NCBI GenBank assembly: GCA_024398435.1
Contig: JAKSJD010000004.1
Location: forward strand, 62,001 to 126,000
Reading direction: 5' to 3'
DNA: 64,000 bases
Origin: Bacteroidaceae bacterium
Lineage (GTDB): Bacteria > Bacteroidota > Bacteroidia > Bacteroidales > Bacteroidaceae
Part shown: positions 4,412-58,851 of the stretch, in pieces
How the letters are laid out: each line of letters opens with the position of its first letter
How positions within the stretch are numbered: the first letter of the stretch is position 1
Notes under the pieces: generated by a model
The model's database searches: none
Seen by the model: the letters and a program-made list of their open reading frames with translations, nothing else
What the model was told of the DNA's origin: nothing
Translations under genes and position numbers: made by a program

Positions 4412-4652
4412 ATTGCGAGTGATGCCCCTATGTTCCACTTTCTTTTCCACTATAATATATACAGCTGCCTTTGTGCGCTGCCCGCCTGTCATGGCAAAGC
4501 GTTACTTGACTTATTGATACAACCGAGGCAATCATCTTTTAGCCCTTAACAATTAACCCTCGTCCCCTAACCGTGAACCCCCTCACGAATGGCAATAAGC
4601 CGGCAAAGTGTAGAATAAACCTATAAAGTTGTAAAAAATGAATTAATTCATT

Positions 4653-4682
4653 TTGCTATGTGAGAAAAATTCCTTAACTTTG
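4653..4682 (+). promoter_or_regulatory. Promoter of the vWA/tubulin/actin locus
   Basis: TTG at 4653-4655, a 19-base spacer and TAACTTTG at 4675-4682 form a near-perfect Bacteroidota promoter. Transcription should begin at about 4688-4690. That leaves only a handful of bases before the ATG at 4693, or about 12-14 before the ATG at 4702, so the 5' leader is very short. Confidence 0.75.
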
Positions 4683-4701
4683 CAAAAATATAATGACTGA
4701 T

Positions 4702-6234
4702 ATGAAAAAGATTCTGAATAATACAATACAACTGCTGGCCGTTGCAATGGTTATGCCCCTTGCCTGCCTATCTCTCTCTTCATGCCGCGATGCAAGGGAG
4801 AAGGAGTTTGACAATCTGCTTGTGAACTTGGCAGAGAGCGACGGCGAAATCGACTTCAACGATTGGGCAGAAATCACAGAATTCATCGATGCCAACAAGG
4901 CCCGCTTGGGTAAGTTCGTCAGTGATGGAGAGATTGATGCCGAAGCTGTGAAAGAGTATATCTCGCAATTCTTCCAGCATCGCCATCCATCCCAGGAGAT
5001 TGCCTTCAACGGAGCAGGCAATGCAAGCGAATTCCTCGCCGTGAAGTTCTATCTCGAGCGCAGCGGAAGCATGGTTCCCTACGATTCGCCACAAGGCAGA
5101 GGCGAGTTTAAGTCTGCCATCGTGAGCATGCTCAACAATCTTCCAGGCAATCCCGACGACAACACGATATTCGTAGTGAACGATGGCGTGTTCCCTTATC
5201 CCAACTCGTTCAAGCAGTTCATCACCGACCAGAATATCTTCGAAACCACTCGCGGAATCGGCAATCCAGGGTACACGGATTTCGGTTGCATCCTCGATTC
5301 AGTGCTCAATCGCAATGGCGATAACGACCTCAGCATCCTCGTGACCGATATGATTTATTCGACGAAGGATGTGGGAGTGGTCAACACGGAGAAGATATTC
5401 ACTGAGGCACAGGGAATGACCCATGCCGTGTTCAAGGATAAGGCTGCGGACAAGGCAATGGTGATTGCACAGATGGAAGGCAGCTACATAGGTCAGTACT
5501 ATCCATACAACCAACCACAGGGAGTGGCTTACTCGGGTGTGCGACCATATTATATAGTTGTTGTGGGCAACAATGAGAATATTGCCCGACTCACCCGAAG
5601 CGACCGCTATAAGGACTTTGCCGACCTCCGTTCGCTCAGCGGTTTCCAGCATGTGAGCCTCTTCTCGGCATCGGGCATCTACAAGCCATTCTATAGTTTC
5701 CTCCTGGCCGACAGCGACATTAAAGGCCGCTTCAAGGCCGACCGCAAACGCTCGGGAGAAGCCGACGTGAAGGCAGTGACCGACTTGAAACCCGACCGCG
5801 ATTCGGGCGATACCCAACTGGTGGTGGCTCTCGATCTCGGCGGAATGTTCGTCGAGGACAGTTATCTGATGGACAAGAACAACTATCGGATTGAAGCCGA
5901 CGAACCAATGGAAATCGTGAGCATCGCGCCAATCGAGCAATCAGACATCACTCCTACCAACAAAGACATCATGGCGAAGGCCACCCACCGAATGGTGCTC
6001 AAGCTCGGCCGAATCACCCATGCTCAGGACATCTGCATCACACTGCTCAACAAGTTCCCACAATGGATTGAGGCATCTTCGAGCGACGACGATTCAGCTC
6101 CTTCGGCTGCCGACCTCGACTTCCCTCACACCACCTTCGGACTTAAATATCTCCTGCGCGGAATCTACGAGAGCTATGCCAAGCAAACCGACGAACCATT
6201 CTACTTCAAGATGGAACTTGGCGTGGGGAATTAG
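4702..6234 (+). CDS. vWA-like lipoprotein, first gene of the tubulin/actin locus
   Basis: This 510-residue protein begins with a lipoprotein signal (MKK, hydrophobic stretch, lipobox ending LSSC near residue 25), so it should be anchored to a membrane outside the cytoplasm. At about residues 117-122 it has LERSGSM, which resembles the metal-binding DxSxS of von Willebrand A domains but with Glu in place of Asp. A Thr in GNPGYTDF (about 190) and an Asp in LVTDMIYS (about 213) fall where the other metal-binding residues of the fold belong. The region after 350 has two acidic, beta-rich stretches of unknown type. An ATG at 4693 is also in frame; I prefer 4702 because MKK starts a normal signal peptide and the transcript start is at about 4689. 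It is followed by a 112-base gap with a perfect 8-base hairpin (6252-6272). The vWA call is from motifs; the ligand is unknown. Confidence 0.75.
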   Translation: MKKILNNTIQLLAVAMVMPLACLSLSSCRDAREKEFDNLLVNLAESDGEIDFNDWAEITEFIDANKARLGKFVSDGEIDAEAVKEYISQFFQHRHPSQEIAFNGAGNASEFLAVKFYLERSGSMVPYDSPQGRGEFKSAIVSMLNNLPGNPDDNTIFVVNDGVFPYPNSFKQFITDQNIFETTRGIGNPGYTDFGCILDSVLNRNGDNDLSILVTDMIYSTKDVGVVNTEKIFTEAQGMTHAVFKDKAADKAMVIAQMEGSYIGQYYPYNQPQGVAYSGVRPYYIVVVGNNENIARLTRSDRYKDFADLRSLSGFQHVSLFSASGIYKPFYSFLLADSDIKGRFKADRKRSGEADVKAVTDLKPDRDSGDTQLVVALDLGGMFVEDSYLMDKNNYRIEADEPMEIVSIAPIEQSDITPTNKDIMAKATHRMVLKLGRITHAQDICITLLNKFPQWIEASSSDDDSAPSAADLDFPHTTFGLKYLLRGIYESYAKQTDEPFYFKMELGVGN

Positions 6235-6251
6235 GTTTTGTGGTTAAGGAA

Positions 6252-6272
6252 TTCAAGAGCGGAACTCTTGAA
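6252..6272 (+). other. Hairpin between the first two genes of the locus
   Basis: TTCAAGAG and CTCTTGAA form a perfect 8-base stem with a 5-base loop. No T run follows, so it is not an ordinary terminator; it could protect or separate the lipoprotein message from the downstream message. Confidence 0.5.
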
Positions 6273-6346
6273 CACTAAACATTTGTTGAGTGGTTAGTGG
6301 TTAGGGTTTAGAGAATTTAGAGAAATAATAAAACAAAAAACAAGAT

Positions 6347-6787
6347 ATGAAGGCTTACATAGCATTTCCAATCATCGGCATCATCATTTCAGTGGCATTC
6401 ATCATGATGGCCACTCCGATGTACGACTCGCTCAATTTCGATGCAGCATTCCTCAACGACATGTACAATTCGTACACCAACACCGCTGTGACCATCGTCT
6501 GCACGGCTTGGATAGTGGCAGCAATCTACTACTATGTCATCAATTCCGTACGCTTCAGTCGCTGGTACCACTGGCTTCTCATGCTCATCGCAGCAGTGAT
6601 CATTGCCCCAGGAATCTCGTTCTACAGCCCTTATGCCGAATTCAGTGAGGAAGGAAAAGACTACATGCAGCAGCTGACCACACTCAACTTCGTCAATGTA
6701 GGCGTGACAATCGTGATGTTCATCGTGGCATCGTTCTCCATCCGCTGGTGGAGCACCAACTGCCGCCACACACCGATTCCAGAGTAG
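6347..6787 (+). CDS. Small four-helix inner-membrane protein of the locus
   Basis: This is a 146-residue protein with four hydrophobic segments at about residues 5-22, 47-67, 74-92 and 115-134, with short polar loops and a polar C-terminus. I do not recognise a family. It lies between the vWA-like lipoprotein and the tubulin-like gene, 46 bases ahead of the latter, and is most likely the membrane partner or anchor of the system. No catalytic motif is visible. Coding is supported by even codon use like the neighbours and by its place within the gene set. Confidence 0.75.
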   Translation: MKAYIAFPIIGIIISVAFIMMATPMYDSLNFDAAFLNDMYNSYTNTAVTIVCTAWIVAAIYYYVINSVRFSRWYHWLLMLIAAVIIAPGISFYSPYAEFSEEGKDYMQQLTTLNFVNVGVTIVMFIVASFSIRWWSTNCRHTPIPE

Positions 6788-6832
6788 AAAGCGAAACGAA
6801 AACAAGAAGTCAAACAAAACAAACGCATAATA

Positions 6833-8359
6833 ATGAATTTATTCTTATTCTTAGTTGGAGGAACCGGTTCGCGAGTGCTCAAACCACTCATCATGCAGTT
6901 TGCCGCAGGCGTAAGGCCAACCGACCAGCAAACCGGACTTCCAATCAAAGACCTGCAAGTGGTGCCAATCATCATGGACCCTCACAGGGCAAACGAAGAC
7001 CTCAAGCGCACCGACGACTTGCTCCGCTGGTATAAGGAAATCCGCCAATCGCTCTACGGCGAACAGATAGAAGTGGAACGCGGATTCTTCAATGTGAAGA
7101 TTGCGACACTCTCCGACCTCGTGCCTCAGCACGGACTTTCCGACACATTCATCTTCAACCTCGGAAGCATTGCAGAAAAAGAGTTTAAGGACTATATCTC
7201 GTTCGACACACTCAACGACAGCAACCAAGCCCTTTGCAGCATGCTCTTCTCGCAGGAACACCTCAACACGAAGATGGACATCGGATTCGTGGGAAGTCCA
7301 AACATAGGCAGTGTGGCACTCAACCAATTCAAGAACTCAGTCGAGTTCCGCGAGTTTGCCAATGTCTACAAGAAGGAAGACAGAGTGTTCATCGTCAGTT
7401 CAATCTTCGGTGGCACAGGAGCTGCAGGTTTCCCAATCATCGTGAAAAACATCCGCGATGCAGCATATAATCCCAACCTCACCAACCGAGGCGACCTTCG
7501 CGATGCAAAGATAGGAGCACTCACCGTATTGCCTTATTTCAACGTGGCAAGCGACGAAAAAAGCCCTATCACACGTTCCGATTTCGTAATCAAGACAAAG
7601 TCGGCACTCTACTACTATCAGGAGAACCTCACAGGGCCAAAGAGCCTTTCGCTCAATGCATGCTACTACCTCGGCGATGAGGAACAGTCAGTGCCTTATC
7701 CAAACGACCCGGGAGGCGACGGACAGCGCAACGATGCCCACTTCATCGAAATGATAGGAGCTTCGGCAATCCTCGATTTCCTCTCAATTCCTGATGATAA
7801 GCTCCGCTCCGTAGACGGCAAGGCAATGAACCCAATATTCCGCGAATACGGATTGAAGCACGATGAGAATATGCTCACACTCATGTCGTTCGGTCAGAAA
7901 ACACGCGACCTCATGAACCAATGCATGGTGAAGTTCCACCTTCTCTTCATGTATGTCACCCACTCATTCCTTCAGGACATCGGACGCGGATACACACTCG
8001 ACAAACCCGAAATCAAGAGCTCGTTTGCTTCCACATCATTCTACCGCACACTGACCAACCAATTCTTCCACTCCTACTACGAGTGGCTGATGGAAATGCA
8101 GAACAACAACCGCAGTTTCGCTCCGTTCAACATCATGAGCCTCAAACTCGACAACTGCATCGTCGGAGTGATGCCAAAGAAGAGTTTCTTCTCGGGAACA
8201 ATCGACTATAAGACAATTCTTGCAGCAATGAATGCCCAATCAAAGAAAGCCCTAAGCCAATCGCTCTATGGCGAAAATCAGGCACCGCTCAAGTTGATGG
8301 ACCTCTTCGACCAAGTGGCCGACAAGATAATTGCCGAAAAGTATAACTCGATAAAATAG
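6833..8359 (+). CDS. Tubulin/FtsZ-like GTPase homologue
   Basis: This is a 508-residue cytoplasmic protein. The N-terminus MNLFLFLVGGTGSRV has the glycine-rich first loop of the tubulin/FtsZ fold at residues 9-14. At about residues 190-199 FGGTGAAG matches the tubulin signature (GGGTGSG/T). The block after it (FPIIVKNIRDA) fits the helix that follows this loop. I could not find the T7 catalytic loop (NxDxxD) with confidence, so GTP hydrolysis on assembly is unproven. The length is greater than FtsZ (about 380) and fits the broader Pfam 'Tubulin_2'/FtsZl-type proteins. It is followed 25 bases later by the actin-like gene, giving a tubulin-like and an actin-like protein in one operon. From family knowledge it should bind GTP and may form filaments; the rest is inference. 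Confidence 0.78.
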   Translation: MNLFLFLVGGTGSRVLKPLIMQFAAGVRPTDQQTGLPIKDLQVVPIIMDPHRANEDLKRTDDLLRWYKEIRQSLYGEQIEVERGFFNVKIATLSDLVPQHGLSDTFIFNLGSIAEKEFKDYISFDTLNDSNQALCSMLFSQEHLNTKMDIGFVGSPNIGSVALNQFKNSVEFREFANVYKKEDRVFIVSSIFGGTGAAGFPIIVKNIRDAAYNPNLTNRGDLRDAKIGALTVLPYFNVASDEKSPITRSDFVIKTKSALYYYQENLTGPKSLSLNACYYLGDEEQSVPYPNDPGGDGQRNDAHFIEMIGASAILDFLSIPDDKLRSVDGKAMNPIFREYGLKHDENMLTLMSFGQKTRDLMNQCMVKFHLLFMYVTHSFLQDIGRGYTLDKPEIKSSFASTSFYRTLTNQFFHSYYEWLMEMQNNNRSFAPFNIMSLKLDNCIVGVMPKKSFFSGTIDYKTILAAMNAQSKKALSQSLYGENQAPLKLMDLFDQVADKIIAEKYNSIK

Positions 8360-8384
8360 CAACCTCACACCCACCAAGATATAA

Positions 8385-11300
8385 ATGAGTAAGATTCTAT
8401 CATACAACAAGAAGAGCAACGGCGAGGATTGGTTCGATATTAACCGCCAATACAGCAAGGACGAAATCGACACCATCTCCGACCCTTCAGCAGGTCTTAC
8501 ATCAAGCCCTCGAACTGCCATTCCAAGTCCGTTTGCACAGATGGACCTCGTAAAGAACGCCTTCCTCCGCCTCTCATACAGCCCCATACTCAAAGGACAG
8601 AAACAAGATGAGAAACTCGTGAGCCAGGCACTCGATGTGGCACAGTTGTTCTTCAACTATTCAGAAATGCGCGAGCGACTGAGAGTGGTCGAATGGAATA
8701 AGGTTCAGGCAATGGAAGAACTGAAGATGAACCCAGAGCACCGCATCTTGGGCGAAACTCTCGAAATGTATCTCCGTCAAGATGCCGAAGCCTACAACTT
8801 CGACCTTATGGATCGCCTCTTCTTCATTGCCTACAACAGCAAAATCATCGGTTGCACATCGCCTGCATCGCTCTTTATGGCTTCGCCAGATGCCGACACA
8901 CTGCTCACCGATAGCGACGGTTCAGATATAGAAATCCCAGTCGAACAGGGCATCAACCTCTTCACACAATGGCGTCCACTCTATCAGCGCGACTTCAAGT
9001 TCGTGAAGTACATCTTTGCACTCTTCACAGCATTTCCTCTCCTCAAGACACGCCTTGAGGCAGTCAACAAATATCTCATCACCAATTATCTCATCCTCAA
9101 TCTCAGTCAGCAAAAGGAAATCCTCGAAGACATCGGAAATCCTCAAGGAATCAATCAAGCCGATGTGGAGAAGGCACGCCAATTCATCGATGCCAACTAT
9201 GAGATGATGGAGGGAGGAATGGAGATTCTCGGCATTCCGCTTTATCAGAGCCGCACCGAAGATGTAATGCAGGAAATTGCAAAGAGCGACTTCATTATCG
9301 TACCTACCCACAAGTTGGCCGAAGGTGAGTTGCTTCCACTCGTTCTTCAGAACAATCTGAATGCTCCAACCACGGATCCATTCAAATACATAACTTACAA
9401 ATGGGACGATTCAATCAAGATTCGTCCTGAGGATTATGCTGTAGCACCTGATCAGCGTACTCTGCCTGCAACTTCTCACCAATACCCTTGGCTTACTGAC
9501 GACGATTTCTTCCAGCCAACACTCATCAAACTCGACTATCCAATTGACAAGGATTGCTTCTTCGATGGAAACTTGGCAGTTTGCAGCACGGGATTGGACA
9601 ACAACCACTTCCTCATTCCGCTCAAACCACTCTTCTTTAAGTATTTTGACGTGAAGGACCTTTGGGGAACCATTGCAGGCAAACCACGATTCGAGATGCA
9701 ATACAGCAAGGTGGGAGTGAGCAAGGCAGTGAAGGTAATCCTCCGAATTCCAGTACAGAAGACGGGTAAGTTCATCACCCTCTCACGAATGTATAAGGCA
9801 GCAATGCCAGCAAGTCAGTCAACTGCTGAAGCTGCTCCTTATCTCGCTTCGCCACAGGTAGGAGAATCAGGCGACGGAGCAGTGACTAAATACACATTCA
9901 TCACACTTCCGTTTGCAATCGCAATATTCCCATTTGCACGCATCGAAGCATCTAATCATTACAATATCCAGATGATTGACCGTGCTCTCGGAGAATACGA
10001 AAACTACAATATCAACCTCGAATTCTACAAGAATACAGACGGAAAGGCAGCTGCCGGAAAGGAAAATCCTGTCGACTGCAAGAAACGTAGGGAAAGAAGC
10101 TTGAAATCGCAGAAGAAAGTTGGTTCGAGCTACTACTCACTTGATTCCGACTTCGACTATACCAAGGTGATTCTCTCAAACGAATTGGGAGCAAAGGTGG
10201 CCGAAGGAATCATCTGTCCAAAGTGGGAGAACGAGGTGCAGGGAGCCGATGCATTCACGTTTGCAGTGGATTTCGGAACTACCAACACACATATAGAATA
10301 CATGAAAGGCGACGATTCGCCCGAGCCACTTCGCATCGAATCGCAATCGCGCAGTCGCTTGATTGCCACACTCTATAATGGCGACAACCTTCTCTATGAT
10401 GTAATCATAAAGCAAGAATTCGCACCAAAGCAAGTTGGTTTGGATTATGGATTCCCACAGCGCACCGTACTCTCCGAATGCGAACGAGTGGATGCAATGA
10501 GTGTGGATGAGGTGGTTTCGCTCGGCGATGCCAACATACCGTTTATCTATGAAAAGGAATCAATAGGTTTCGGCAATCGAATCATTCCTAACTTGAAATG
10601 GTCGTCGGAATCGGCCAACAGCAAGCGAATCAGTTGTTACCTCACTGAAATCGCAATGCTGATGCGCACGAAAGTATTGCTTGAGCAGGGCAATCTCTCG
10701 CAGACAAGGCTTGTATGGTTCTATCCATTGAGTATGGAAAGCGGAAAGGTAAGCCAATTGCGCCAAACATGGATGAAAGTGTTCCAGAAAGTGTTTGGCA
10801 TTCCTGCAAAGGAAGGCATCAACCTCATCGAAATGCCTGAATCCGTTGCACCATACTATTTCTACAAGAATTCGGCACAGTTCAAGGGTTCGGCATCCAC
10901 TGTTGCCTCAATCGATATCGGTGGAGGTTCGAGCGATGTTGTGATTTACCAGAGAGAATCGGATTCGAAGTTGCCAAGCGTTGTCACTTCATTCCGCTTT
11001 GCTGCCAACACATTGTTTGGCGATGCTTTCTCTGAAGTTCCGCAAGGCGACCACAACCCAATGCTCATCAAGTATGTGGATTATTTCCGCAAGTTGTTCA
11101 ACAGCGACGACGACCTCTACGGCGAACTTTCGGGCATTCTCGACGACATTGTGAGCAAGAAGAAATCGGAGGACATCAATGCATTCCTCTTCTCCGTTGC
11201 TGCTAATAAGGTGACTCGCGGAAACGATGTGTTCTCCTACAATCTCCGACTCAATCAAGATGGCCTTCGCAAGATAATCTTCATCTATTTCTACACCACA

Positions 11301-11972
11301 ATCATTTATTATGTGGCCAAACTGATGATGAACAAGGGCTTGGACATGCCTCGAAGCATCATGTTCAGTGGAACTGGTTCGAAGGTTCTCAACATCGTAG
11401 GCAGCCATCGTGAGTTGGATTCGTTCACACAGATAATCGTCGAACGCATCTACGGAAAGGAATACGATGATAATGGATTCTCGGTAGTTATCGAAGAGAA
11501 GGAACCAAAGCAAATCACATGCCGCGGAGCACTTCTCCAAGTGAATTCAGAGGCAGGATTGAAGGCAATCAACGACATCAACAAGTGTATGGACGATTTC
11601 AAGACACCGCTCAAGTCGAACTATTCGATGCTCGAATCGCATCCTACAATCACTTATGCCGATGCCACCGACGAGAAGATTATGAAAGCCATCGTGGACG
11701 AAGTGAAGAAATACAACGAATTCTTCATCTCACTTTGTGAGGACATTCGTGTGGCCGACCGTTTCTTGGTTGCTGGTGAGGCATGGAACCTCTTCAAGCA
11801 GGAAGTGGGACGCGACCTCGAACACCATCTCATCCAGGGTTGGAACTTTACAATCAAGAACCAGACAATCCTCAATGAGAACGACCCTGTGGCCGACACA
11901 TTGTTCTTCTACCCAATCATCGGTTCAATTCGCAATAATTTAATAGACAATATAAAAGAAAAAAACTTATGA
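8385..11972 (+). CDS. Large protein with C-terminal actin/Hsp70-fold ATPase domain
   Basis: This is a 1195-residue protein with no signal peptide or clear membrane segment. From about residue 620 it has the actin/Hsp70 nucleotide-binding fold: phosphate-1 loop VDFGTTNTH (about 625), phosphate-2 loop IDIGGGSSDVV (about 840) and the adenosine motif IMFSGTGSKV (about 991). The first 620 residues match nothing I recognise; they are mixed alpha/beta with several aromatic-rich stretches. The domain order (large unknown part, then ATPase) is unlike DnaK, MreB, ParM or FtsA. Its TGA stop overlaps the ATG of the next gene (ATGA at 11969-11972), so the two are translationally coupled. It probably uses ATP to change shape or polymerise with the tubulin-like partner; this last step is inference. 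Confidence 0.8.
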   Translation: MSKILSYNKKSNGEDWFDINRQYSKDEIDTISDPSAGLTSSPRTAIPSPFAQMDLVKNAFLRLSYSPILKGQKQDEKLVSQALDVAQLFFNYSEMRERLRVVEWNKVQAMEELKMNPEHRILGETLEMYLRQDAEAYNFDLMDRLFFIAYNSKIIGCTSPASLFMASPDADTLLTDSDGSDIEIPVEQGINLFTQWRPLYQRDFKFVKYIFALFTAFPLLKTRLEAVNKYLITNYLILNLSQQKEILEDIGNPQGINQADVEKARQFIDANYEMMEGGMEILGIPLYQSRTEDVMQEIAKSDFIIVPTHKLAEGELLPLVLQNNLNAPTTDPFKYITYKWDDSIKIRPEDYAVAPDQRTLPATSHQYPWLTDDDFFQPTLIKLDYPIDKDCFFDGNLAVCSTGLDNNHFLIPLKPLFFKYFDVKDLWGTIAGKPRFEMQYSKVGVSKAVKVILRIPVQKTGKFITLSRMYKAAMPASQSTAEAAPYLASPQVGESGDGAVTKYTFITLPFAIAIFPFARIEASNHYNIQMIDRALGEYENYNINLEFYKNTDGKAAAGKENPVDCKKRRERSLKSQKKVGSSYYSLDSDFDYTKVILSNELGAKVAEGIICPKWENEVQGADAFTFAVDFGTTNTHIEYMKGDDSPEPLRIESQSRSRLIATLYNGDNLLYDVIIKQEFAPKQVGLDYGFPQRTVLSECERVDAMSVDEVVSLGDANIPFIYEKESIGFGNRIIPNLKWSSESANSKRISCYLTEIAMLMRTKVLLEQGNLSQTRLVWFYPLSMESGKVSQLRQTWMKVFQKVFGIPAKEGINLIEMPESVAPYYFYKNSAQFKGSASTVASIDIGGGSSDVVIYQRESDSKLPSVVTSFRFAANTLFGDAFSEVPQGDHNPMLIKYVDYFRKLFNSDDDLYGELSGILDDIVSKKKSEDINAFLFSVAANKVTRGNDVFSYNLRLNQDGLRKIIFIYFYTTIIYYVAKLMMNKGLDMPRSIMFSGTGSKVLNIVGSHRELDSFTQIIVERIYGKEYDDNGFSVVIEEKEPKQITCRGALLQVNSEAGLKAINDINKCMDDFKTPLKSNYSMLESHPTITYADATDEKIMKAIVDEVKKYNEFFISLCEDIRVADRFLVAGEAWNLFKQEVGRDLEHHLIQGWNFTIKNQTILNENDPVADTLFFYPIIGSIRNNLIDNIKEKNL

Positions 11973-13195
11973 AGAAATTCTTAATCGTAGCACTCACGAT
12001 GGTTGTTTCCATTGTCAGTGCAAGTGCTCAAACGTTGGAGCAAAGAAAGATTTGTGCTCTGAAGTGGACGCTTCAGCAGTCGTTCTACAACAAGGAAGTG
12101 GGTCAGCAGATTTCACATCTTGATGTTACAGAGTTCAAGTCGTTCGAGGAATTCCAGAAAAACAAGTATGTCAGCGAAGCTATCAGCAAACTCACTGACA
12201 AAACCGACCAATCTCGCGTGAACAACATCATCAGTGCAAAGGAAGGTGACGATGTTTCTGCTTATATTCCTACAAATGGCAAGGGCAAGTACCAGGAAGA
12301 CGTAGAGAAGATTAAGAGTCAATCTCCTGCCGAAGAGGAAGAAACAGAAGAAGCAGTTGAGCAGGAAGACACAACAAAGAAAGAAGCCATCCAACCAGTG
12401 GAGGAACCTACTGACGAAGCAGAGGCAGCAGATGAGGCAGTTGCCGGCGAAGAAAGTGCAGAAGGTGGTGCTGCAACCGGTGGTGTTTCGTTCTGGCTTG
12501 CAGTGTTGATTGCATTCCTTGTTTACGCAATCCTCACAGCTTGTCTTTATTTCTTCCATAAGGGACATAAGAATGAAGTTCGCACCGAACCAATGGTAAC
12601 TCTCGAGCAATATCGTTCAGAGAGAGTTCGCCTCTTGGAGCGTATCAAGGCAGTTGAGATACAGATGGAGAACATGAAGGGCGGTGCTGCAGCAAATCAA
12701 AAGGCAGAGGCTCCAAAACCACAGCCACAAGCTGCACAGCCATCACAACCTGCACAACCAACTGTTGAGAACAAGCCAGCAGTAAATGCCGACCTCTTTG
12801 GCAAACCAGCCGTTGAAAACAAGCCAGCAGCTCCTGCAGCTCCTGCTGTTCCTGTTGAAGGAGTTCCACAGCCACCACGCCGCCGCACTGCAATCTTATT
12901 CTTCCCAGTTCCAGTTGAAGGCGTGTTTGCTAACGGAACAGAAGAAATCGAAATGGGCAAGTCGCTCTATATGCTCAAGACCACGGATGGCGAAAACGGT
13001 ACGTTCACAATCCTCAACACTCCAGAGGCAATCGGTACTGCTCTCATTTCGCTCTCTGAAATGGTGAAGCCCGTATGTAAGATTCTCAACACAGTGGATG
13101 CTCCGCTTGAAATCGTTACAGAGGCTCCTGGTCAGGCAGTTCGCGAAGGCAACTCATGGAGAGTTGTTTCAAAGTCGGTCGTAAGATTGATATAA
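11969..13195 (+). CDS. Membrane-anchored linker protein of the locus
   Basis: This 408-residue protein has a cleavable-looking signal peptide (residues 1-20, ending SASAQ), a 100-residue extracytoplasmic part, a very acidic Glu-rich linker (about 110-165) and one membrane helix (about 173-195, FWLAVLIAFLVYAILTACLY). A short coiled coil (about 210-235), a Pro/Ala/Lys-rich linker (about 240-305) and a compact C-terminal domain of about 100 residues follow. The C-terminal domain would then be cytoplasmic, joined to the membrane by a flexible tether, where it could bind the filament proteins. The linker contains the repeated phrase VENKPA. It starts inside the stop codon of the actin-like gene. 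I do not recognise the family. Confidence 0.78.
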   Translation: MKKFLIVALTMVVSIVSASAQTLEQRKICALKWTLQQSFYNKEVGQQISHLDVTEFKSFEEFQKNKYVSEAISKLTDKTDQSRVNNIISAKEGDDVSAYIPTNGKGKYQEDVEKIKSQSPAEEEETEEAVEQEDTTKKEAIQPVEEPTDEAEAADEAVAGEESAEGGAATGGVSFWLAVLIAFLVYAILTACLYFFHKGHKNEVRTEPMVTLEQYRSERVRLLERIKAVEIQMENMKGGAAANQKAEAPKPQPQAAQPSQPAQPTVENKPAVNADLFGKPAVENKPAAPAAPAVPVEGVPQPPRRRTAILFFPVPVEGVFANGTEEIEMGKSLYMLKTTDGENGTFTILNTPEAIGTALISLSEMVKPVCKILNTVDAPLEIVTEAPGQAVREGNSWRVVSKSVVRLI

Positions 13196-13247: not shown

Positions 13248-13276
13248 GCTGCTCTTTATGTGTGTGCATCGGGAAG

Positions 13277-13348
13277 TACCTCCACTGAGAATCGAACTCA
13301 GATCTAATCTTTAGGAGAGATTTGTTCTATCCATTGAACTATGAAGGC
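13277..13348 (-). tRNA. tRNA-Arg (anticodon CCU)
   Basis: The minus strand folds into a 72-base cloverleaf: a 7-base acceptor stem (starting GCCTTCA, with G:U pairs), a D-arm GTTC/GAAC, an anticodon stem AATCT/AGATT enclosing CTCCTAA with anticodon CCT at positions 34-36, and a T-arm CTGAG-TTCGATT-CTCAG. It reads AGG codons. CCA is not encoded, as is common in Bacteroidota. A TATCTTTG box lies just upstream (plus-strand positions 13359-13366). No integrase or repeated tRNA end is nearby, so there is no sign that it has served as an integration site. Confidence 0.93.
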
Positions 13349-13467: not shown

Positions 13468-14076
13468 ATGATGTCTTTTACTGAGATTTGCAATCCTATT
13501 TTTGTGAAAGTTATTGATGACTATCATTTGCTCAATGATGTTGATCAGGATATTCACAATCCCTATGAGAGAGGTACGATTGAGTATGATTTATATGTAA
13601 AGAACTGGATTGATACCGTGCAGTGGCATTTGGAGGATATTATCCGCGACCCACACATCAATCCTACTGATGCCCTTGTATTGAAGCGCAGAATCGACAA
13701 GAGCAATCAGGACAGAACCGACCTTGTGGAGCGTATCGACTCTTATTTCCTCGAGACATATTGCAATGTACGCCCACTGCCTGATGCTACTATCAACACT
13801 GAAAGTCCTGCATGGGCAATCGACCGCCTGAGCATTCTTGCTCTCAAGATTTACCACATGAAGGAACAGGTGGAGCGCACTGATGCTTCGGCCGAACATA
13901 TTGAGCGCTGCAAGGCAAAGCTCGCTATCTTGCTTGAGCAGCAGAAGGACCTTTCATCGGCAATCGACCAGTTGCTCGCTGATATCGAAGCTGGAAGAAA
14001 ATACATGAAGGTGTATCGCCAGATGAAGATGTATAACGACCCAAGTACGAACCCAATCCTCTACGGACAGAAATAA
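13468..14076 (+). CDS. DUF4254 family protein
   Basis: This is a 202-residue, mostly helical, soluble protein. The N-terminal MSFTEICNPIFVKVIDDYHL and the internal RGTIEYDLYVKNWIDTVQWHLED (given here only as the family hallmark region, residues about 30-53) match the DUF4254 family of Bacteroidota, whose genes usually sit next to heptosyltransferase genes, as here. The function is unknown; the context suggests lipopolysaccharide core synthesis. Start at 13468 or the next ATG at 13471. The gap to the GT9 gene is 16 bases, so they are cotranscribed. Confidence 0.82.
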   Translation: MMSFTEICNPIFVKVIDDYHLLNDVDQDIHNPYERGTIEYDLYVKNWIDTVQWHLEDIIRDPHINPTDALVLKRRIDKSNQDRTDLVERIDSYFLETYCNVRPLPDATINTESPAWAIDRLSILALKIYHMKEQVERTDASAEHIERCKAKLAILLEQQKDLSSAIDQLLADIEAGRKYMKVYRQMKMYNDPSTNPILYGQK

Positions 14077-14092
14077 CCCCCCCGACTCATCA

Positions 14093-15100
14093 ATGATGAA
14101 CCGCCTTCTCATCATGCGCTTTTCGGCTATGGGCGATGTTGCAATGACAGTGCCTGTGGTCTTTTCGCTTGCTCAGCAATATCCGCAGTTGCAGATTACG
14201 ATGCTCACCAACAAGCGCTTGCTTCCGTTTTTCGAGTGGATGCCGGCTAATGTTGAGGCTATCGGTGTCGACATCAAGTCGTACAAAGGCTTGAAGGGTT
14301 TGGAAAGGCTCTTCCATGATGCCAATGTCCACGATTTTGATGCTGTGGCCGATATCCACGACGTAATCCGTACGAAATATGTGAGAATGCGTTTCCGCAT
14401 GAAGGGAAAGAGGGTGGCGGTCATCGATAAGGGAAGGAAGGAGAAGAAGGCATTGCTCGGACATTCGGCCGACCATGCACCTCTCAAACCAATGACCGAG
14501 CGTTATCGTGAGGTGTTCCAGAAGCTTGGATTGGATTTCCAGTTCACGTTTGATTGCCTCCATCCTTCGGCCGAATCGATGGATTTCCCAGTCAAGGGTG
14601 AAAAGGGCAAAATCATCGGAGTGGCTCCGTTTGCCGCCCATCAAGGGAAGGTATATCCGCTCGACAGAATGAAGCGAGTGGTGGATTTGTTGGCCGACGA
14701 TGGCTATCAAGTGTATCTCTTCGGTGCGGGTAAGGACGAGAAGGCAGTGCTCGAGAGTTGGGAGCGAGATGGAGTGGAATCCGTTTCGGGCAAGTTGGGC
14801 GGATTGAAGAGCGAACTCATTCTCATGAGTCGGTTGGACATTATGCTGTCGATGGATTCGAGCAATATGCACATGGCTGCAATGATGGGCACAAAGACGC
14901 TTTCCATCTGGGGAGCAACCCATCCAAAGGCAGGATTCAAGGCTTGGCAACAGACGGACGATTCGATTATTCAGCGTGAGTGTAATTGCCGTCCTTGTTC
15001 GATTTATGGCAACAAACCATGCCGCATGGGCAATTTTATGTGTATGGATATAAATCCCGAAACAATAGTCAGAGCAATCAGAAATGGCAGAGTTGACTAA
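14093..15100 (+). CDS. Glycosyltransferase family 9 (heptosyltransferase-like)
   Basis: This 335-residue protein starts NRLLIMRFSAMGDVAMTVPV, the standard N-terminus of ADP-heptose:LPS heptosyltransferases (RFSAxGDVxxTxPV). The second half has GVAPFAAHQGKVYPLDRM (donor-binding domain) and the SMDSSNMHMAA block with the conserved acidic and histidine positions of GT9. It should add heptose or a related sugar to the lipopolysaccharide core on the cytoplasmic side of the inner membrane. It overlaps the next gene by 17 bases, which fits joint lipid A/core synthesis. Either of the two ATGs at 14093/14096 may be used. Confidence 0.88.
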   Translation: MMNRLLIMRFSAMGDVAMTVPVVFSLAQQYPQLQITMLTNKRLLPFFEWMPANVEAIGVDIKSYKGLKGLERLFHDANVHDFDAVADIHDVIRTKYVRMRFRMKGKRVAVIDKGRKEKKALLGHSADHAPLKPMTERYREVFQKLGLDFQFTFDCLHPSAESMDFPVKGEKGKIIGVAPFAAHQGKVYPLDRMKRVVDLLADDGYQVYLFGAGKDEKAVLESWERDGVESVSGKLGGLKSELILMSRLDIMLSMDSSNMHMAAMMGTKTLSIWGATHPKAGFKAWQQTDDSIIQRECNCRPCSIYGNKPCRMGNFMCMDINPETIVRAIRNGRVD

Positions 15101-16010
15101 ATCACAAAGCATTGGCTACGGCCTTCTCAACGTGGGACTTCGCTGCATATCGGCGTTGCCCCTCGATGTGCTTTATGCGTTTTCCGACATTGCCTATCCG
15201 TTTGTCCGTACATTCTATAGGAAGAAAGTCGTACGCAAGAATCTCGAGGAGGCTTTCCCTCGCCGAAGCAAGGAAGAACTCAGGAAGATTGAGAGCGACT
15301 TCTACCATCATTTCTGCGATTTGTTGGCAGAGATTGTGAAGCAACCTTCGATGTCGAGGGAGATGATGATGGAGCACATGAAGTTCATCGGAATCGACCG
15401 AATGAGGAAGGTGTATGCCGATGGTGCTGACCTTCTGATTTGCTATCTCGGTCATTTTGGCAATTGGGAATGGGTGGCTTCGTTGCAGTATTGGGTTCCC
15501 GAAATCCATTGCACTCAGGTTTACCATCCACTCTATGATAAGGTGTTCGACAAGACATTCCTCAACATCCGCACTCGTTATGGAGGCGAATGCATCCCGA
15601 TGAAATCGGCCGTAAGGCGATTGATTCAGCTTCGCAACGAGAAGACGAAGACCGTTTGCGGAATGATAAGCGACCAACTGCCAAAATGGAATGCCATCCA
15701 TCATTTCACGCATTTCCTCAATCACGAAACGGCTGTGTTCACGGGTTCGGAACAATTGGGCAAGAAACTCGGAGCCAGCTTCATGTATGGACGTGTGACA
15801 AAGCCAAAGCGCGGGCATTATGTGCTCGAATGGCTGCCTGTGGACATTCGCGACGATGAGAGCGGAGAGGGATTTGAAGTGACGGATGCCTATATGCGAA
15901 TGCTCGAAAAGGATATTGAAGCCCATCCCGAATTGTGGCTCTGGACGCATAAGCGCTGGCGCCGAACGAAGGAGGAATGGGAAGAAAGGAATAAAGAAAA
16001 GAAAGAATAG
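15084..16010 (+). CDS. Lipid A late acyltransferase (LpxL/HtrB family)
   Basis: This is a 308-residue inner-membrane acyltransferase. The catalytic H(x4)E motif is visible as HFGNWE at about residue 123, with GMISDQLP further on replacing the usual RxDQ block. It has one N-terminal hydrophobic stretch. It transfers a secondary acyl chain to a lipid A precursor. It starts inside the end of the GT9 gene and ends one base before the chromate transporter start, so DUF4254 - GT9 - acyltransferase form one unit. Confidence 0.88.
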   Translation: MAELTKSQSIGYGLLNVGLRCISALPLDVLYAFSDIAYPFVRTFYRKKVVRKNLEEAFPRRSKEELRKIESDFYHHFCDLLAEIVKQPSMSREMMMEHMKFIGIDRMRKVYADGADLLICYLGHFGNWEWVASLQYWVPEIHCTQVYHPLYDKVFDKTFLNIRTRYGGECIPMKSAVRRLIQLRNEKTKTVCGMISDQLPKWNAIHHFTHFLNHETAVFTGSEQLGKKLGASFMYGRVTKPKRGHYVLEWLPVDIRDDESGEGFEVTDAYMRMLEKDIEAHPELWLWTHKRWRRTKEEWEERNKEKKE

Positions 16011-54533: not shown

Positions 54534-54693
54534 GAATTAATGTACAGTTTACGATGTACGAAGTACAGGTAATTAATATAATGAGATAGATATCTCACGG
54601 CAAAGATACAAAAAATGTAGAATGTAGAATGAAGAATGCATAAATATTTTAATAAAAATGTTAATATTTTTCACAAAACCATCGATTGACCAT

Positions 54694-54722
54694 TTGCCAA
54701 AGGCAGAAAATTCGTATTTTTG
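54694..54722 (+). promoter_or_regulatory. Promoter of the hybrid sensor gene
   Basis: TTG at 54694-54696, an 18-base spacer and TATTTTTG at 54715-54722. It places the start at 54775, not at the earlier ATG at 54658. Confidence 0.6.
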
Positions 54723-54774
54723 CAGTCGAAACGAGAGATATACCTCAAACCTTTTTTTTGATAGATACGATAAT

Positions 54775-57700
54775 ATGACGAAAGTTGCTGGGCGATGCCC
54801 ATTCCTAAGATTCCTGATATTGGTAGCTTTTTCATTCCATGTATTTTCAGCTACTGCTCAGATGGCTCGCATGTACACCATCCAGCAAGGACTTACTACG
54901 AGCGACATTTCCGACATATATATCGATTCGAAAGGCATGGTGTTGCTTCCTGGCCTTGCATCTCTCGATTTGTTTGATGGAGTCAGTTTCCACCACGATT
55001 TCCATCAGGCATTTATGAAGCAAAAACTCGTAAATTCATTTTCCGGAGTGGTCGAACTGAGCGGCGACCGCTATTTGGTGAAGTCGAGTAATGGTTTGAT
55101 GCTTTTTGATGTGAGGAAGAATGATTTCCGCCATTTGCTTCTCGATGAGGCTGAGGATTCGGTGAAAGGCTATCCCATCACGTCGCTTGTGGAATATAGG
55201 CAGAAGGATTGTTTCATCGTTTCGGCCATGGGCGGCGGATTGTTTGCCATCGACCGCCATACAGCCAAGGTCAATGAAGCCCTTACCCATCGGTTGAAGT
55301 CGAAGGTGTCGAGCAAGTTGTGTGGCAATCTGTATGTAGATTCCGATGAGAATCTATGGATAAACACGTCCGACCGCAAGATGATTGCGTTCCACATGCC
55401 GACGATGAACCGACTGAAGCTGAACATTACGCCCGATGCCGAGCAAGTTATTACAGATGGGGTTGTGTCATCGATGATTCAGCAGCGCACCACGGGCAAT
55501 ATGTTGTTCACCACGGGTGAAGGCGTTGTGATATTCGACCGTTCCACGAAGACGTTGCGCATGAGCAATGGCAGTAAGGCCATTGCCAACATGCTGATAA
55601 ATCAAATATACGAAACCCACGAGGGCAAGTTGCTCGTAGGCACGGATGGTATGGGAGTTTGGCAGATGGGGGTCGATGAGATGTTCAGTCAGTATTCGTT
55701 TTCTGAGTTTCATCTCAATCTCAATCATGCCAAGGTCAGGGTGATGGCCGAGGATTCCGACGGCAATATGATAATGGTGATTTTCCAGAAGGGAATCATC
55801 GTCATTCCAGATAGGGCAGTCAGTTTCAATTCCATATTCCCCGAAAACGATATCTTCCAGTCGTCGTGTGTCACGTCGATGACGTCCACGTCGGATGGCC
55901 GCTATTGGATTGGTACCGATGGCCGAGGCGTTTATGTGTGTGAAGAGGGCAATCTCGATGCCGCCCATCCGGTAGAGATTGGTGAGAATGCCAAGTTGGT
56001 TCAGAGCATAGTGGTCGACAAATCCGAAGGCGTGTGGGTTGGTTCCTATGGAGGCGGAGTCAAACACTATGAGCAAGGTCGTTTCGTCACCCCTTTGTGG
56101 CTCTCCACTCTCAGCAGCGAACTGATTATGTCGATGGCCTATGATGCCAGGAACAATATATTATATATAGGAACGAATGGCAACGGAGTGTATGTGGCCG
56201 ATCTCGATTCTAAACAATTGTCGCCGCTCACCCTTTCGTTCGATATCAATCAATGGATCTCTAATCTCTATTTCGATTCCGAAGGCATTCTGTGGATAGC
56301 CACGATGTCGGGAATATTCTATTACGACCGCAATTCCTCCACTTTGGGCGACTCCCAGGGCGAGGTGAAGTTCGGCAATTCCGATATCATCATCACCCGC
56401 TGCATTGCCAAGATTGACGACATGTTGTATTTCGGCACCAACAAGGGATTAGTCGAATACAATCCCCGTTCGAAGCAGGGGCGATATGTGATTGAGGGCA
56501 AGGACGTGATGTCAGTCGTGGCCACAGCTTCCGACATTTGGTGTTCTACGTCGCAGAATATTATCAGCATCAACAAGTCGACGGGCAATGTCCATCAATA
56601 TTCGTCGATTGGCAGTTTCTTCGTGGGCGAGTTCCATCGTTCCTCATTCATGGCCCACGGTGGCCGCATCTATTTCGGTGGCGACAATGGCATCATCAGT
56701 TTCGTTCCGTCGCATATTGTGCAAGGCAAGCCACTCCGACATCCGATATTGCTTTCTTCGCTCAAGGTCAACGGTTCACCGATTGAATTCCACGAAGGTG
56801 CGTCCGACAACTTCACCGAATCCTACATTTCATCGGCCAAGTGTCTCAAGTTGCCTCATTCGCAGAATTCTTTCGGTCTTGAATTCTATGTTCCGGTTCT
56901 TTCCTCGTTTGAGCAAATCCACTATCAGTATATGCTCGAAGGCTATGAAGACACATGGCACGATGCCACTTCGGAGCAGCGCGAACTCCACTATTCGAGT
57001 TTGCCTTCAGGCCACTACAACCTCATCATCCGCGCCTTCTACGAATCAGATAAGGACCACTATAAGGAGCGCATTCTCGAGGTCGAGGTAGGCTATCCGT
57101 GGTATGCCACTCCATGGGCCCGACTGCTCTATCTCCTCCTTGCCATTGTAGGTGTGGTTGCAGCCTATCGTTTCCATTGCGAGCAGCAGAAGCAGAAGCG
57201 CCTGCTCAATCAGGCAAAGCAAGCCGAGCAACTGAAGGAAGCCAAGTTGCACCTCTTTACCAGCATCACCCACGAACTCCGTTCGCCTCTCACGATGATC
57301 ATCTCGCCGCTCAATCAGCTCATGTCCACCACCGACAACCCCGAAACCGCCAGTCTCTATAAGGTCATGCGGCGCAATTGCGACAAGCTCTTGGGCATCG
57401 TGAAGCAGATGACCGACATCCGTAAAATCGACAACGGCCAGTTCCATCTCCATTTCTCCGAAGTCAATTTCATCGACTATGCCGACGAGATATTCTCCTC
57501 CTTTGCAGCCATTCAGGCCGTGAAGCAGATATCGTTCACCGTGGAGCATGCCAGCCAAAACATCATGCTCTGGATTGACACCGTCCATTTCGAGAAGATT
57601 CTTACCAATATCCTCTCCAATGCCTTCAAGTTCACGCCCGAAGGCGGAAAAATCTTCGTACGCACTTGCTACATCATCCGCAACAGCAACGACTGGCTCG

Positions 57701-58851
57701 AAATCCGTATCTACAACAGCGGTTCCCACATCGACGGCAACGACCTTCCACACATCTTCGAGCGATTCTATCAGGGCAGTCAGGCGGGAGCCACCGTCGG
57801 TTCGGGCATCGGCCTCAATCTCGCCTCCGAACTTGTCAACCTCCACCACGGCACCATCTCCTGCCACAATATCGACCCCGATGGCGTAGAGTTTGTTCTC
57901 CAGTTCCCAATCGGCAGCAAGCATCTCTCCGAGGAGGAAGTGCTTCCACGCCCAGTGGACGAAACGGCACCGACTGAGTCGTCACAGTTGGCCGAGTTGA
58001 CCGAGATAGCCACAATCGAGCAACAGAATGCCAATACTTCCGAAAACCGGCAGAAGAAGACCATCCTCATCGTCGACGACGACAAGTCGCTCTGCCTTTT
58101 CATCCGCGAACAGATGGCTGACGACTACAACATACTCCTTGCCCATAGTGGCAATGCCGCATGGCAGACAGTGCTCACCTCCCGTCCCGATGCCGTTGTC
58201 ACGGATATCCGAATGCCCGATGGCGACGGACTCCAACTCTGCCAGCGCATCAAGCACAATCCAGAAACCGACAATATTCCTATCATCATGCTCACGAGCG
58301 AAAATGGCGACCGAGCACAAATCAACAGTCTCAATCTTCAGGTCGACCATTTCCTCAGCAAGCCATTCAACATGCTCGTACTGAAAGGAGTTGTAGCACA
58401 GGCAATCCGAGTGCGCGAGCAGATGCTTGGCCGCATACGCCGAGCCGAAATCGACTACGACTACAGCCGCGTCACAGTCGACAGTGCCGATGAGCAACTC
58501 TATGCCCGCATCAATTCTGCCCTCCGCGACCATATCGACGATTCGTCGTTCGGTGTGAACGAACTGGCCACCGAAGTAGGCATCAGCCGAGTGCATCTCA
58601 ATCGCAAACTCAAGGAGCAGTATGGCATCACGCCAAATCTCTTCATCCGTTCGTTCCGAATGAAGCAAGCCGCCTATCTCCTTGCGGGAGGCAAAGCCAG
58701 CATATCCGAAGTAGCCGACCGAGTGGGCTATTCGTCGCATTCACATTTCAGCAACACGTTCCACGACTATTTCGGAATGACACCAAAGGAATTCGTTGCC
58801 ACCTATTCCGACAATCTCGACGACGAATCCCTTCAGAAGCTTCTGCAATAG
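54775..58851 (+). CDS. Hybrid two-component system sensor/regulator (HTCS)
   Basis: This 1358-residue protein is a full Bacteroidota one-protein sensor-regulator. In order: a signal anchor (about 9-31); a periplasmic two-component propeller domain to about 700 (repeats such as DGRYWIGTDGRGVYV, EGILWIATMSGIFYY); a Y_Y_Y domain to about 775; a membrane helix (about 780-800); a histidine kinase with FTSITHELRSPLTM (His about 833) and ATPase IGLNLASELVNLHHG; a receiver domain (VDDDKSLCLF; phospho-Asp about 1144 in TDIRMPDGDG); and an AraC-type DNA-binding domain at about 1255-1345. Such proteins sense a sugar fragment and turn on nearby genes. Here the facing genes are a beta-barrel protein and two GLPGLI proteins, not a SusCD pair, so its regulon is unclear. 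Confidence 0.93.
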   Translation: MTKVAGRCPFLRFLILVAFSFHVFSATAQMARMYTIQQGLTTSDISDIYIDSKGMVLLPGLASLDLFDGVSFHHDFHQAFMKQKLVNSFSGVVELSGDRYLVKSSNGLMLFDVRKNDFRHLLLDEAEDSVKGYPITSLVEYRQKDCFIVSAMGGGLFAIDRHTAKVNEALTHRLKSKVSSKLCGNLYVDSDENLWINTSDRKMIAFHMPTMNRLKLNITPDAEQVITDGVVSSMIQQRTTGNMLFTTGEGVVIFDRSTKTLRMSNGSKAIANMLINQIYETHEGKLLVGTDGMGVWQMGVDEMFSQYSFSEFHLNLNHAKVRVMAEDSDGNMIMVIFQKGIIVIPDRAVSFNSIFPENDIFQSSCVTSMTSTSDGRYWIGTDGRGVYVCEEGNLDAAHPVEIGENAKLVQSIVVDKSEGVWVGSYGGGVKHYEQGRFVTPLWLSTLSSELIMSMAYDARNNILYIGTNGNGVYVADLDSKQLSPLTLSFDINQWISNLYFDSEGILWIATMSGIFYYDRNSSTLGDSQGEVKFGNSDIIITRCIAKIDDMLYFGTNKGLVEYNPRSKQGRYVIEGKDVMSVVATASDIWCSTSQNIISINKSTGNVHQYSSIGSFFVGEFHRSSFMAHGGRIYFGGDNGIISFVPSHIVQGKPLRHPILLSSLKVNGSPIEFHEGASDNFTESYISSAKCLKLPHSQNSFGLEFYVPVLSSFEQIHYQYMLEGYEDTWHDATSEQRELHYSSLPSGHYNLIIRAFYESDKDHYKERILEVEVGYPWYATPWARLLYLLLAIVGVVAAYRFHCEQQKQKRLLNQAKQAEQLKEAKLHLFTSITHELRSPLTMIISPLNQLMSTTDNPETASLYKVMRRNCDKLLGIVKQMTDIRKIDNGQFHLHFSEVNFIDYADEIFSSFAAIQAVKQISFTVEHASQNIMLWIDTVHFEKILTNILSNAFKFTPEGGKIFVRTCYIIRNSNDWLEIRIYNSGSHIDGNDLPHIFERFYQGSQAGATVGSGIGLNLASELVNLHHGTISCHNIDPDGVEFVLQFPIGSKHLSEEEVLPRPVDETAPTESSQLAELTEIATIEQQNANTSENRQKKTILIVDDDKSLCLFIREQMADDYNILLAHSGNAAWQTVLTSRPDAVVTDIRMPDGDGLQLCQRIKHNPETDNIPIIMLTSENGDRAQINSLNLQVDHFLSKPFNMLVLKGVVAQAIRVREQMLGRIRRAEIDYDYSRVTVDSADEQLYARINSALRDHIDDSSFGVNELATEVGISRVHLNRKLKEQYGITPNLFIRSFRMKQAAYLLAGGKASISEVADRVGYSSHSHFSNTFHDYFGMTPKEFVATYSDNLDDESLQKLLQ

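What the first reader, a model, noticed from the sequence alone, without database searches (positions are those of the whole stretch)
4653..13195. Five-gene locus combining tubulin-like, actin/Hsp70-like and vWA-like proteins with membrane anchors
The set has a vWA-like lipoprotein, a four-helix membrane protein, a tubulin/FtsZ-like protein with both glycine loops, a 1195-residue protein with an actin/Hsp70-fold ATPase, and a single-pass protein with long acidic and Pro/Ala linkers and a compact cytoplasmic end. The genes share one strand, have short gaps and one ATGA coupling. I recall that Makarova and Koonin (2010) described an FtsZ-like family in a membrane-remodelling system with a vWA protein; here an actin-fold ATPase takes the place of the GTPase partner. 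The likely idea is a two-filament machine at the membrane, linked across it by the two anchored proteins. That is inference; no function is visible.
Basis: partly seen in the sequence, partly recalled or inferred. Interest (0 to 1): 0.92.

Follow-up and report, generated by a model that had tools for sequence, protein, structure and literature searches.

The report
Mobile tubulin–actin envelope machine in Bacteroidota
Some gut and environmental bacteria carry a portable block of genes that couples a relative of tubulin to a relative of actin at the cell envelope, often next to parts resembling an ion-driven motor; it is probably an accessory machine, perhaps for defence, rather than part of normal cell division.

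Summary
The five genes are real, on one strand, tightly spaced and under purifying selection. The tubulin-like protein (C) keeps both glycine loops in 50 of 50 near-full-length sequences; the 1195-aa protein (D) keeps the key residues of all three actin/Hsp70 nucleotide motifs in 48 of 48. C and D are adjacent in 50 of 51 mapped loci (one broken locus lacks D), their trees share 33 of 41 splits, and one further genome fuses both in a single 1615-aa protein. The core is vWA-like lipoprotein (A), small membrane protein (B), C, D; it also sits on cyanobacterial plasmids.

In 24 of 51 loci the operon adds a MotA/ZorA-like and a MotB/ZorB-like gene, not found in the window's genome. E is not a fixed partner: 9 of 9 readable congener loci lacking A–D keep it at the same place.

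Patchy distribution, plasmid and phage-contig carriage, and added trypsin- or caspase-like genes point to an accessory conflict-type system more than core cytoskeleton. C is not canonical FtsZl1. New variant of a known kind; nine paper searches found no description.

The parts
4652..4682 (+). promoter-like TTTG-N19-TAACTTTG ahead of gene A
   Evidence: read by eye; consensus recalled, not tested
4693..6234 (+). gene A: vWA-like lipoprotein, 513 aa (a second ATG at 4702 may be the start)
4774..4785 (+). lipobox LSSC (residues 28-31) of A
   Evidence: the Cys is invariant in 15 aligned relatives
5056..5070 (+). vWA-like motif ERSGS (residues 122-126) of A
   Evidence: both Ser invariant in 15; two of three cyanobacterial relatives have DGSGS or DASGS
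6347..6787 (+). gene B: 146-aa membrane protein, four hydrophobic segments
6833..8359 (+). gene C: tubulin/FtsZ-superfamily protein, 508 aa
6857..6868 (+). first glycine loop GGTG of C (T1-like)
   Evidence: the three Gly in 50 of 50, T/S between
7409..7420 (+). second glycine loop GGTG of C (T4-like signature)
   Evidence: 50 of 50
7712..7750 (+). candidate T7-like loop of C (residues 294-306)
   Evidence: Q298 50/50, E306 49/50, N300 46/50; the T7 assignment is inference from spacing
8385..11972 (+). gene D: 1195-aa protein, about 620-residue N-terminal region of unknown fold plus actin/Hsp70-type ATPase
10269..10289 (+). phosphate-1 motif DFGTTNT of D (residues 629-635)
   Evidence: D629 and G631 48/48
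10914..10937 (+). phosphate-2 motif DIGGGSSD of D (residues 844-851)
   Evidence: D844, G846, G847, D851 48/48
11367..11384 (+). adenosine motif SGTGSK of D (residues 995-1000)
   Evidence: G996, G998 48/48
11969..13195 (+). gene E: 408 aa, signal-like N-terminus, acidic stretch, one TM, Pro/Ala linker, C-terminal domain; kept without A-D in congeners

Best explanation
A-B-C-D is a horizontally mobile, envelope-associated NTPase machine. Shown: C is a tubulin-superfamily protein and D an actin-superfamily ATPase by conserved motifs; they are adjacent, co-inherited and once fused. Inferred: C forms GTP-dependent polymers or oligomers under the inner membrane and D binds C and controls its assembly or anchoring, much as FtsA partners FtsZ; A (lipoprotein, periplasmic or outer membrane) senses the envelope or a ligand; B and, where present, E pass the state across the inner membrane. 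In about half of the loci a MotA/MotB- or ZorA/ZorB-like pair would convert ion flux into force or signal on the cytoplasmic assembly; in a minority trypsin- or caspase-like proteases would be the output. The most likely role is conditional protection of the cell against an invader or envelope attack, a conflict system, not routine division or shape.
For: Motifs: C loops 50/50, D motifs 48/48. D family profile to MreB 1.5e-6 and Hsp70 2e-4, and profiles without them still find FtsA of two dcw clusters at 5e-6 and 8e-6 and their FtsZ at about 0.01 (identities). C-D adjacent in 50 of 51 loci; the loci were found by C in some searches and by D in others. Trees share 33 of 41 splits against at most 3 in 1000 label shuffles. 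Fusion in L036: C stretch iE 1.6e-10, D stretch iE 5.9e-6. Stator pair: three H proteins match PADLOC ZorB models at 1e-10 to 5e-14; G matches ZorA in 2 of 3 tested at 1e-4 and 3e-5; H profile to a MotB-related chain 3e-11. Accessory and mobile: D at E<1e-100 in 12 of 395 Bacteroidota, 31 of 251 of the family at E<=1e-30, 4 of 16 of the genus; cyanobacterial plasmids; phage-type contigs, one with tape measure and sheath genes, one with an integrase. Trypsin-like ORFs in 8 and caspase-like in 2 of 51 loci. The genome has its own FtsZ and FtsA.
Against: No experiment and no structure. C's link to tubulin is weak by single-sequence statistics. The window copy has no adjacent protease or stator and lies beside a conserved tRNA-Arg/DUF4254/GT9/LpxL block shared by L002-L004, so it looks stably resident. 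PADLOC gave no match below 1e-3 for A-E; a scan of ten flanking or accessory proteins gave matches for three, so no clear defence island. The G profile found no MotA in the PDB. Three H (near copies L121-L123) lack the Asp. Prophage carriage in L165 rests on a contig whose A gene lies 815 bases from the contig end, so host flank is not excluded. E of Bacteroidota and of cyanobacteria are not demonstrably homologous.
Confidence: 0.42

Rival explanations
1. A membrane-remodelling cytoskeleton: C and D form filaments that bend or organise the inner membrane (vesicles, local envelope growth), as Makarova and Koonin proposed for FtsZl1 with vWA, OmpA-domain and GTPase partners.
For: Same kinds of parts: tubulin-like protein, vWA-like lipoprotein, membrane proteins, and OmpA-type domains in H (Pfam OmpA E 1e-4). 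Purifying selection.
Against: Patchy within the genus (4 of 16), on plasmids and phage-type contigs, protease add-ons; C differs from FtsZl1 in length and partners.
Confidence: 0.25
2. D works as an Hsp70-like chaperone or switch rather than a polymer partner; with A it sets a threshold that releases C assemblies or effectors, like the chaperone-gated conflict systems of Kaur et al.
For: D's phosphate-1 loop matches Hsp70; Kaur et al. describe tubulin, HSP70 and vWA themes (PMC7159879, sections 27 and 29 read). Proteases in some loci.
Against: No Pfam HSP70 match in single D sequences and the N-terminal region has no known relative; a canonical C-terminal substrate domain was not seen. MreB is the best profile hit.
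Confidence: 0.17
3. A DNA or organelle positioning system, like plasmid TubZ or ParM, using one or both filaments.
For: On plasmids in cyanobacteria.
Against: Chromosomal in most mapped loci; membrane lipoprotein and stator-like partners do not fit; no DNA-binding partner was recognised among the Pfam-scanned operon proteins.
Confidence: 0.06
4. An ion-driven envelope motor (transport, gliding or secretion) of which C-D is the cytoplasmic track and G-H the stator; loci without G-H are reduced.
For: G-H pair in 24 of 51 loci, downstream on the same strand in 23; the no-stator window clade nests among stator-bearing rows (direction of change not inferable).
Against: Over half of loci, and all three cyanobacterial plasmid loci mapped, lack the pair.
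Confidence: 0.1

Closest known systems
FtsZl1 / Pfam Tubulin_2 systems with vWA (Makarova and Koonin 2010, PMC2875224; parts 1-3 of 5 read)
   Same: tubulin-superfamily protein next to a vWA-type gene and membrane or OmpA-domain proteins; found in Bacteroidota and cyanobacteria
   Different: C is about 460-600 aa, not about 1000; no coiled-coil/helical C-terminal extension of that length; D replaces a GTPase; 8 of 8 canonical ~1000-aa loci in the Bacteroidota sample lack A-E, G, H
GAP1-N2 GTPase-centred conflict systems with tubulin or HSP70 themes (Kaur et al. 2020, PMC7159879; sections 27, 29 and passages)
   Same: tubulin, vWA and HSP70-type modules at the membrane; proteases elsewhere in that paper's systems
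   Different: no TRAFAC GTPase or FNIII component recognised (GAP1 not tested); there tubulin and HSP70 are described as non-overlapping themes; that paper calls the GTPase systems nearly absent from cyanobacteria
Zorya ZorA-ZorB (PMC11890865, passages)
   Same: G and H resemble ZorA (MotA-like with long tail) and ZorB (TM with Asp plus OmpA-like domain)
   Different: no ZorC/D/E recognised among the proteins scanned with PADLOC; partners are A-E
FtsA-FtsZ
   Same: actin-fold ATPase paired with tubulin-fold GTPase encoded side by side
   Different: order C then D; the genome also has normal FtsZ and FtsA; D is about 1200 aa, no FtsA Pfam match above cut-off
SrfABC (search listing and model matches only)
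   Same: very weak SrfB match of D (E=0.2) and SrfA match of E (E=0.44)
   Different: match limited to a 25-residue phosphate motif; no SrfC; sequences not fetched

Membership tests
tubulin/FtsZ superfamily (C) | glycine-rich signature loop GGTG (T4) and N-terminal T1 loop | tested here: met
   50 of 50 for the Gly of both loops
tubulin/FtsZ superfamily (C) | significant profile match | tested here: inconclusive
   window protein below Pfam cut-off; cyanobacterial member 40.8 bits against cut-off 27 for Tubulin_2; PDB hits all FtsZ/tubulin-type but E>=0.15
tubulin/FtsZ superfamily (C) | fold and GTP-dependent polymerisation | not testable with these tools
   structure prediction switched off
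FtsZl1 (C) | about 1000-aa architecture with coiled coil and helical C-terminal domain | tested here: not met
   508 aa; canonical members 986-1215 aa open frames in 8 genomes; coiled coil itself not computed
actin/Hsp70 superfamily (D) | phosphate-1, phosphate-2 and adenosine motifs in order | tested here: met
   key residues 48 of 48; profile match to MreB and Hsp70
actin/Hsp70 superfamily (D) | fold, ATPase, polymer or chaperone activity | not testable with these tools
   no structure
vWA domain (A) | DxSxS MIDAS motif | tested here: inconclusive
   ExSxS in the window and, with variants, in Bacteroidota; DxSGS in two of three cyanobacterial copies; no PDB or Pfam match
MotB/ZorB-like (H) | single TM with conserved Asp, OmpA-like PG-binding domain | tested here: met
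   Asp in 21 of 24 aligned; ZorB models; OmpA sub-threshold E 1e-4
MotA/ZorA-like (G) | MotA/ExbB transmembrane pair | tested here: inconclusive
   Pfam MotA_ExbB over cut-off in one of seven scanned (23.2 against 22.9 bits, L027), sub-threshold in two, absent in four; ZorA models in 2 of 3
Zorya defence system | ZorAB with ZorCD or ZorE | tested here: not met
   no ZorC/D/E match among proteins scanned; not all flanking genes were scanned, and the window has no ZorAB-like pair
GAP1-N2 GTPase-centred conflict system | DO-GTPase, GAP1 and FNIII components | tested here: inconclusive
   no GTPase or FNIII family among Pfam-scanned operon proteins; GAP1 models not searched

The most novel reading that the evidence does not exclude
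A mobile immune machine in which a tubulin-like GTPase and an actin-fold ATPase co-assemble under the inner membrane and are coupled, through a MotAB-like stator in half of its members, to ion flux and the cell wall: an antiviral system that is itself a two-filament cytoskeleton.
Probability: 0.17. Interest if true: 0.93.

Novelty: new variant of a known kind. Interest (0 to 1): 0.76.

Why it matters
A conserved operon in which a tubulin-superfamily and an actin-superfamily NTPase are always neighbours, and once fused, is rare outside FtsA-FtsZ. If they work together, it is a second independent case of a tubulin-actin pairing and gives the predicted vWA/tubulin membrane systems a concrete, testable partner. 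The stator-like genes and mobile carriage link it to Zorya-type ion-driven defence, and the trypsin and caspase add-ons to conflict systems.

Tried and rejected
An early D profile included FtsA and a C profile FtsZ (L035, L037); these and L036 were removed and the profiles rebuilt. The idea that L035 and L037 were minimal C-D pairs was rejected: they are dcw FtsA-FtsZ. The early G profile reached L033 and L036, but the clean one did not. DUF4254 (13468-14076) was dropped as a member: it belongs with GT9 and LpxL and is present in 11 of 12 congeners without A-D. E as an obligatory member was rejected for this genus. A congener empty site was looked for; A-D are missing but the upstream genes differ, so no clean insertion boundary is claimed. 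E of Bacteroidota against cyanobacterial E-like proteins: not significant. SrfABC kinship: too weak. The phages collection gave no D match. In one search, rows L003, L027, L122, L123 were left out as near copies; L102-L104 are the same contigs as L002, L004, L003 and were not counted; G397 (two fragments) was not mapped. The 51 loci are not independent: near copies such as L002/L003, L026/L027, L039/L107, L071/L072, L121-L123 count separately.
Full report
What is there. The window holds five + strand genes at 4693-13195: A, a lipoprotein with a vWA-like ExSxS motif; B, a 146-aa membrane protein; C, 508 aa with two GGTG loops; D, 1195 aa with three actin/Hsp70 nucleotide motifs; E, a single-pass protein. 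C-D are 25 bases apart and D-E overlap by ATGA. The window lies in a 77.6% complete genome, G000; close relatives of the locus are Bacteroidaceae.

Identity of C and D. Single-sequence statistics are weak: Pfam Tubulin 0.001 and Tubulin_2 0.006 for C, SrfB 0.2 for D, all below cut-off. Families do better. The D profile reaches MreB at 1.5e-6 and Hsp70 at 2e-4, with matches at both phosphate motifs. Of 32 PDB sequences listed for C, 32 are FtsZ/tubulin-type, but at E 0.15-3.8. In 50 near-full-length C sequences the glycines of both loops are invariant; in 48 D sequences D629, G631, D844, G846, G847, D851, G996 and G998 are invariant. With FtsA, FtsZ and the fusion removed, the D profile still finds the FtsA of two dcw clusters at 5e-6 and 8e-6, the C profile their FtsZ at about 0.01 (identities). 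A cyanobacterial C passes the Tubulin_2 cut-off (40.8 against 27 bits). D's N-terminal 620 residues have no relative of known structure (two hits, E 0.18 and 1.2).

They belong together. I mapped 54 loci. L035 and L037 are FtsA-FtsZ and L036 is a fusion; of the other 51, C and D are adjacent on one strand in 50, and the exception, L024, is a broken locus without D. A is upstream on the same strand in 45, on the opposite strand in one, not detected in five; B upstream in 41; E downstream in 32. C and D trees of 44 loci share 33 of 41 splits; 1000 label shuffles reached at most 3 (quick trees with some long branches). In L036 one 1615-aa frame carries a C-like stretch (iE 1.6e-10) and a D-like stretch (iE 5.9e-6). 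The genome has separate FtsZ and FtsA.

A missing part. In 24 of 51 loci two more genes occur, downstream on the same strand in 23. H has one TM with W-x-S-x-x-D-L-M, the Asp present in 21 of 24 aligned, and an OmpA-like domain. Three of three H proteins match PADLOC ZorB models at E 1e-10 to 5e-14, and two of three G proteins match ZorA at 1e-4 and 3e-5. The H profile matches a MotB-related chain at 3e-11 and a further membrane protein at 1.4e-8 (that these are Zorya entries is recalled). The G profile found no MotA in the PDB, and Pfam MotA_ExbB was over its cut-off in one of seven G proteins scanned. The window's genome has neither gene by profile, within its incompleteness; 5 of 13 genomes searched have them.

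E is not fixed. Of 12 genus members without D, none matched C (genomes 59-94% complete), 11 have DUF4254. In 9 of 10 fetched regions E lies directly by tRNA-Arg and DUF4254 without A-D, 45-50% identical to the window's E; the tenth region is only 1035 bases. E therefore works or persists alone in this genus.

Distribution and mobility. D at E<1e-100 occurs in 12 of 395 Bacteroidota genomes; each of the 12 also has a C match nearby. A further 90 genomes have only short matches around phosphate-2 (E down to 1.4e-8), in MreB- or FtsA-sized frames. In the family 31 of 251 genomes match at 1e-30, and 4 of 16 in the genus. Cyanobacterial plasmids carry an A-like gene, a small membrane protein, C, D and one or more single-pass proteins (of the five cyanobacterial records listed, three were opened). 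Five of 61 pattern stretches in IMG/VR encode C, and D is adjacent in five of five. The L165 contig also encodes a tape measure 54% identical to that of Winogradskyella phage Peternella_1 and a sheath-like protein, and tail-fibre matches; L168 has an integrase near the operon. No match was found in the phages collection.

Add-ons. Trypsin-like ORFs occur in 8 and caspase-like in 2 of 51 loci, TerD-like in one. Ten flanking or accessory proteins were scanned with PADLOC and three matched, two of them to a protease of an RT-associated system. The window copy has none of these beside it.

Contrast with FtsZl1. Full-length Tubulin_2 genes of 986-1215 aa occur in 8 of 395 genomes and not next to A-E, G or H by our profiles in 8 of 8 fetched loci (several regions are short). 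Four C-family members give weak or borderline matches to the same model.

Mechanism. Shown: superfamily motifs, adjacency, co-inheritance, fusion, membrane segments, stator-like genes in about half of loci. Inferred: C assembles with GTP, D controls it, A senses, B and E relay, G-H add ion-driven work, proteases act in a few. I favour a conflict-type role at 0.42 for the whole statement, with membrane remodelling at 0.25.

Papers. PMC2875224: parts 1-3 of 5 read, and passages. PMC7159879: outline, sections 27 and 29, passages. PMC11890865, PMC12505986, PMC8195603: passages only. Others: search listings. Searches showed no paper describing this operon; the library lacks most subscription papers and bioRxiv.

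Noticed in passing
L036:548-5395: A 1615-aa protein with tubulin-like N-terminal and actin/Hsp70-like later region, in one reading frame.
   Followed up: partly
L121-L123 H genes: The MotB-like protein of three near-identical loci has Gly where the others have the conserved Asp, suggesting an inactive or altered stator.
   Followed up: no
L114 and L115 (genome G582): One genome carries two diverged C-D loci.
   Followed up: no
window 13276-13348 (-): tRNA-Arg (CCT) between E and DUF4254, conserved in L002-L004 and in nine congeners without A-D.
   Followed up: yes
window 13468-16010: DUF4254, heptosyltransferase (GT9) and LpxL-like genes, apparently a separate conserved envelope operon.
   Followed up: partly
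L024: A broken copy: C split in two frames, D missing, G and H shortened.
   Followed up: no
window 54658-58851: A 1397-aa ORF not examined.
   Followed up: no
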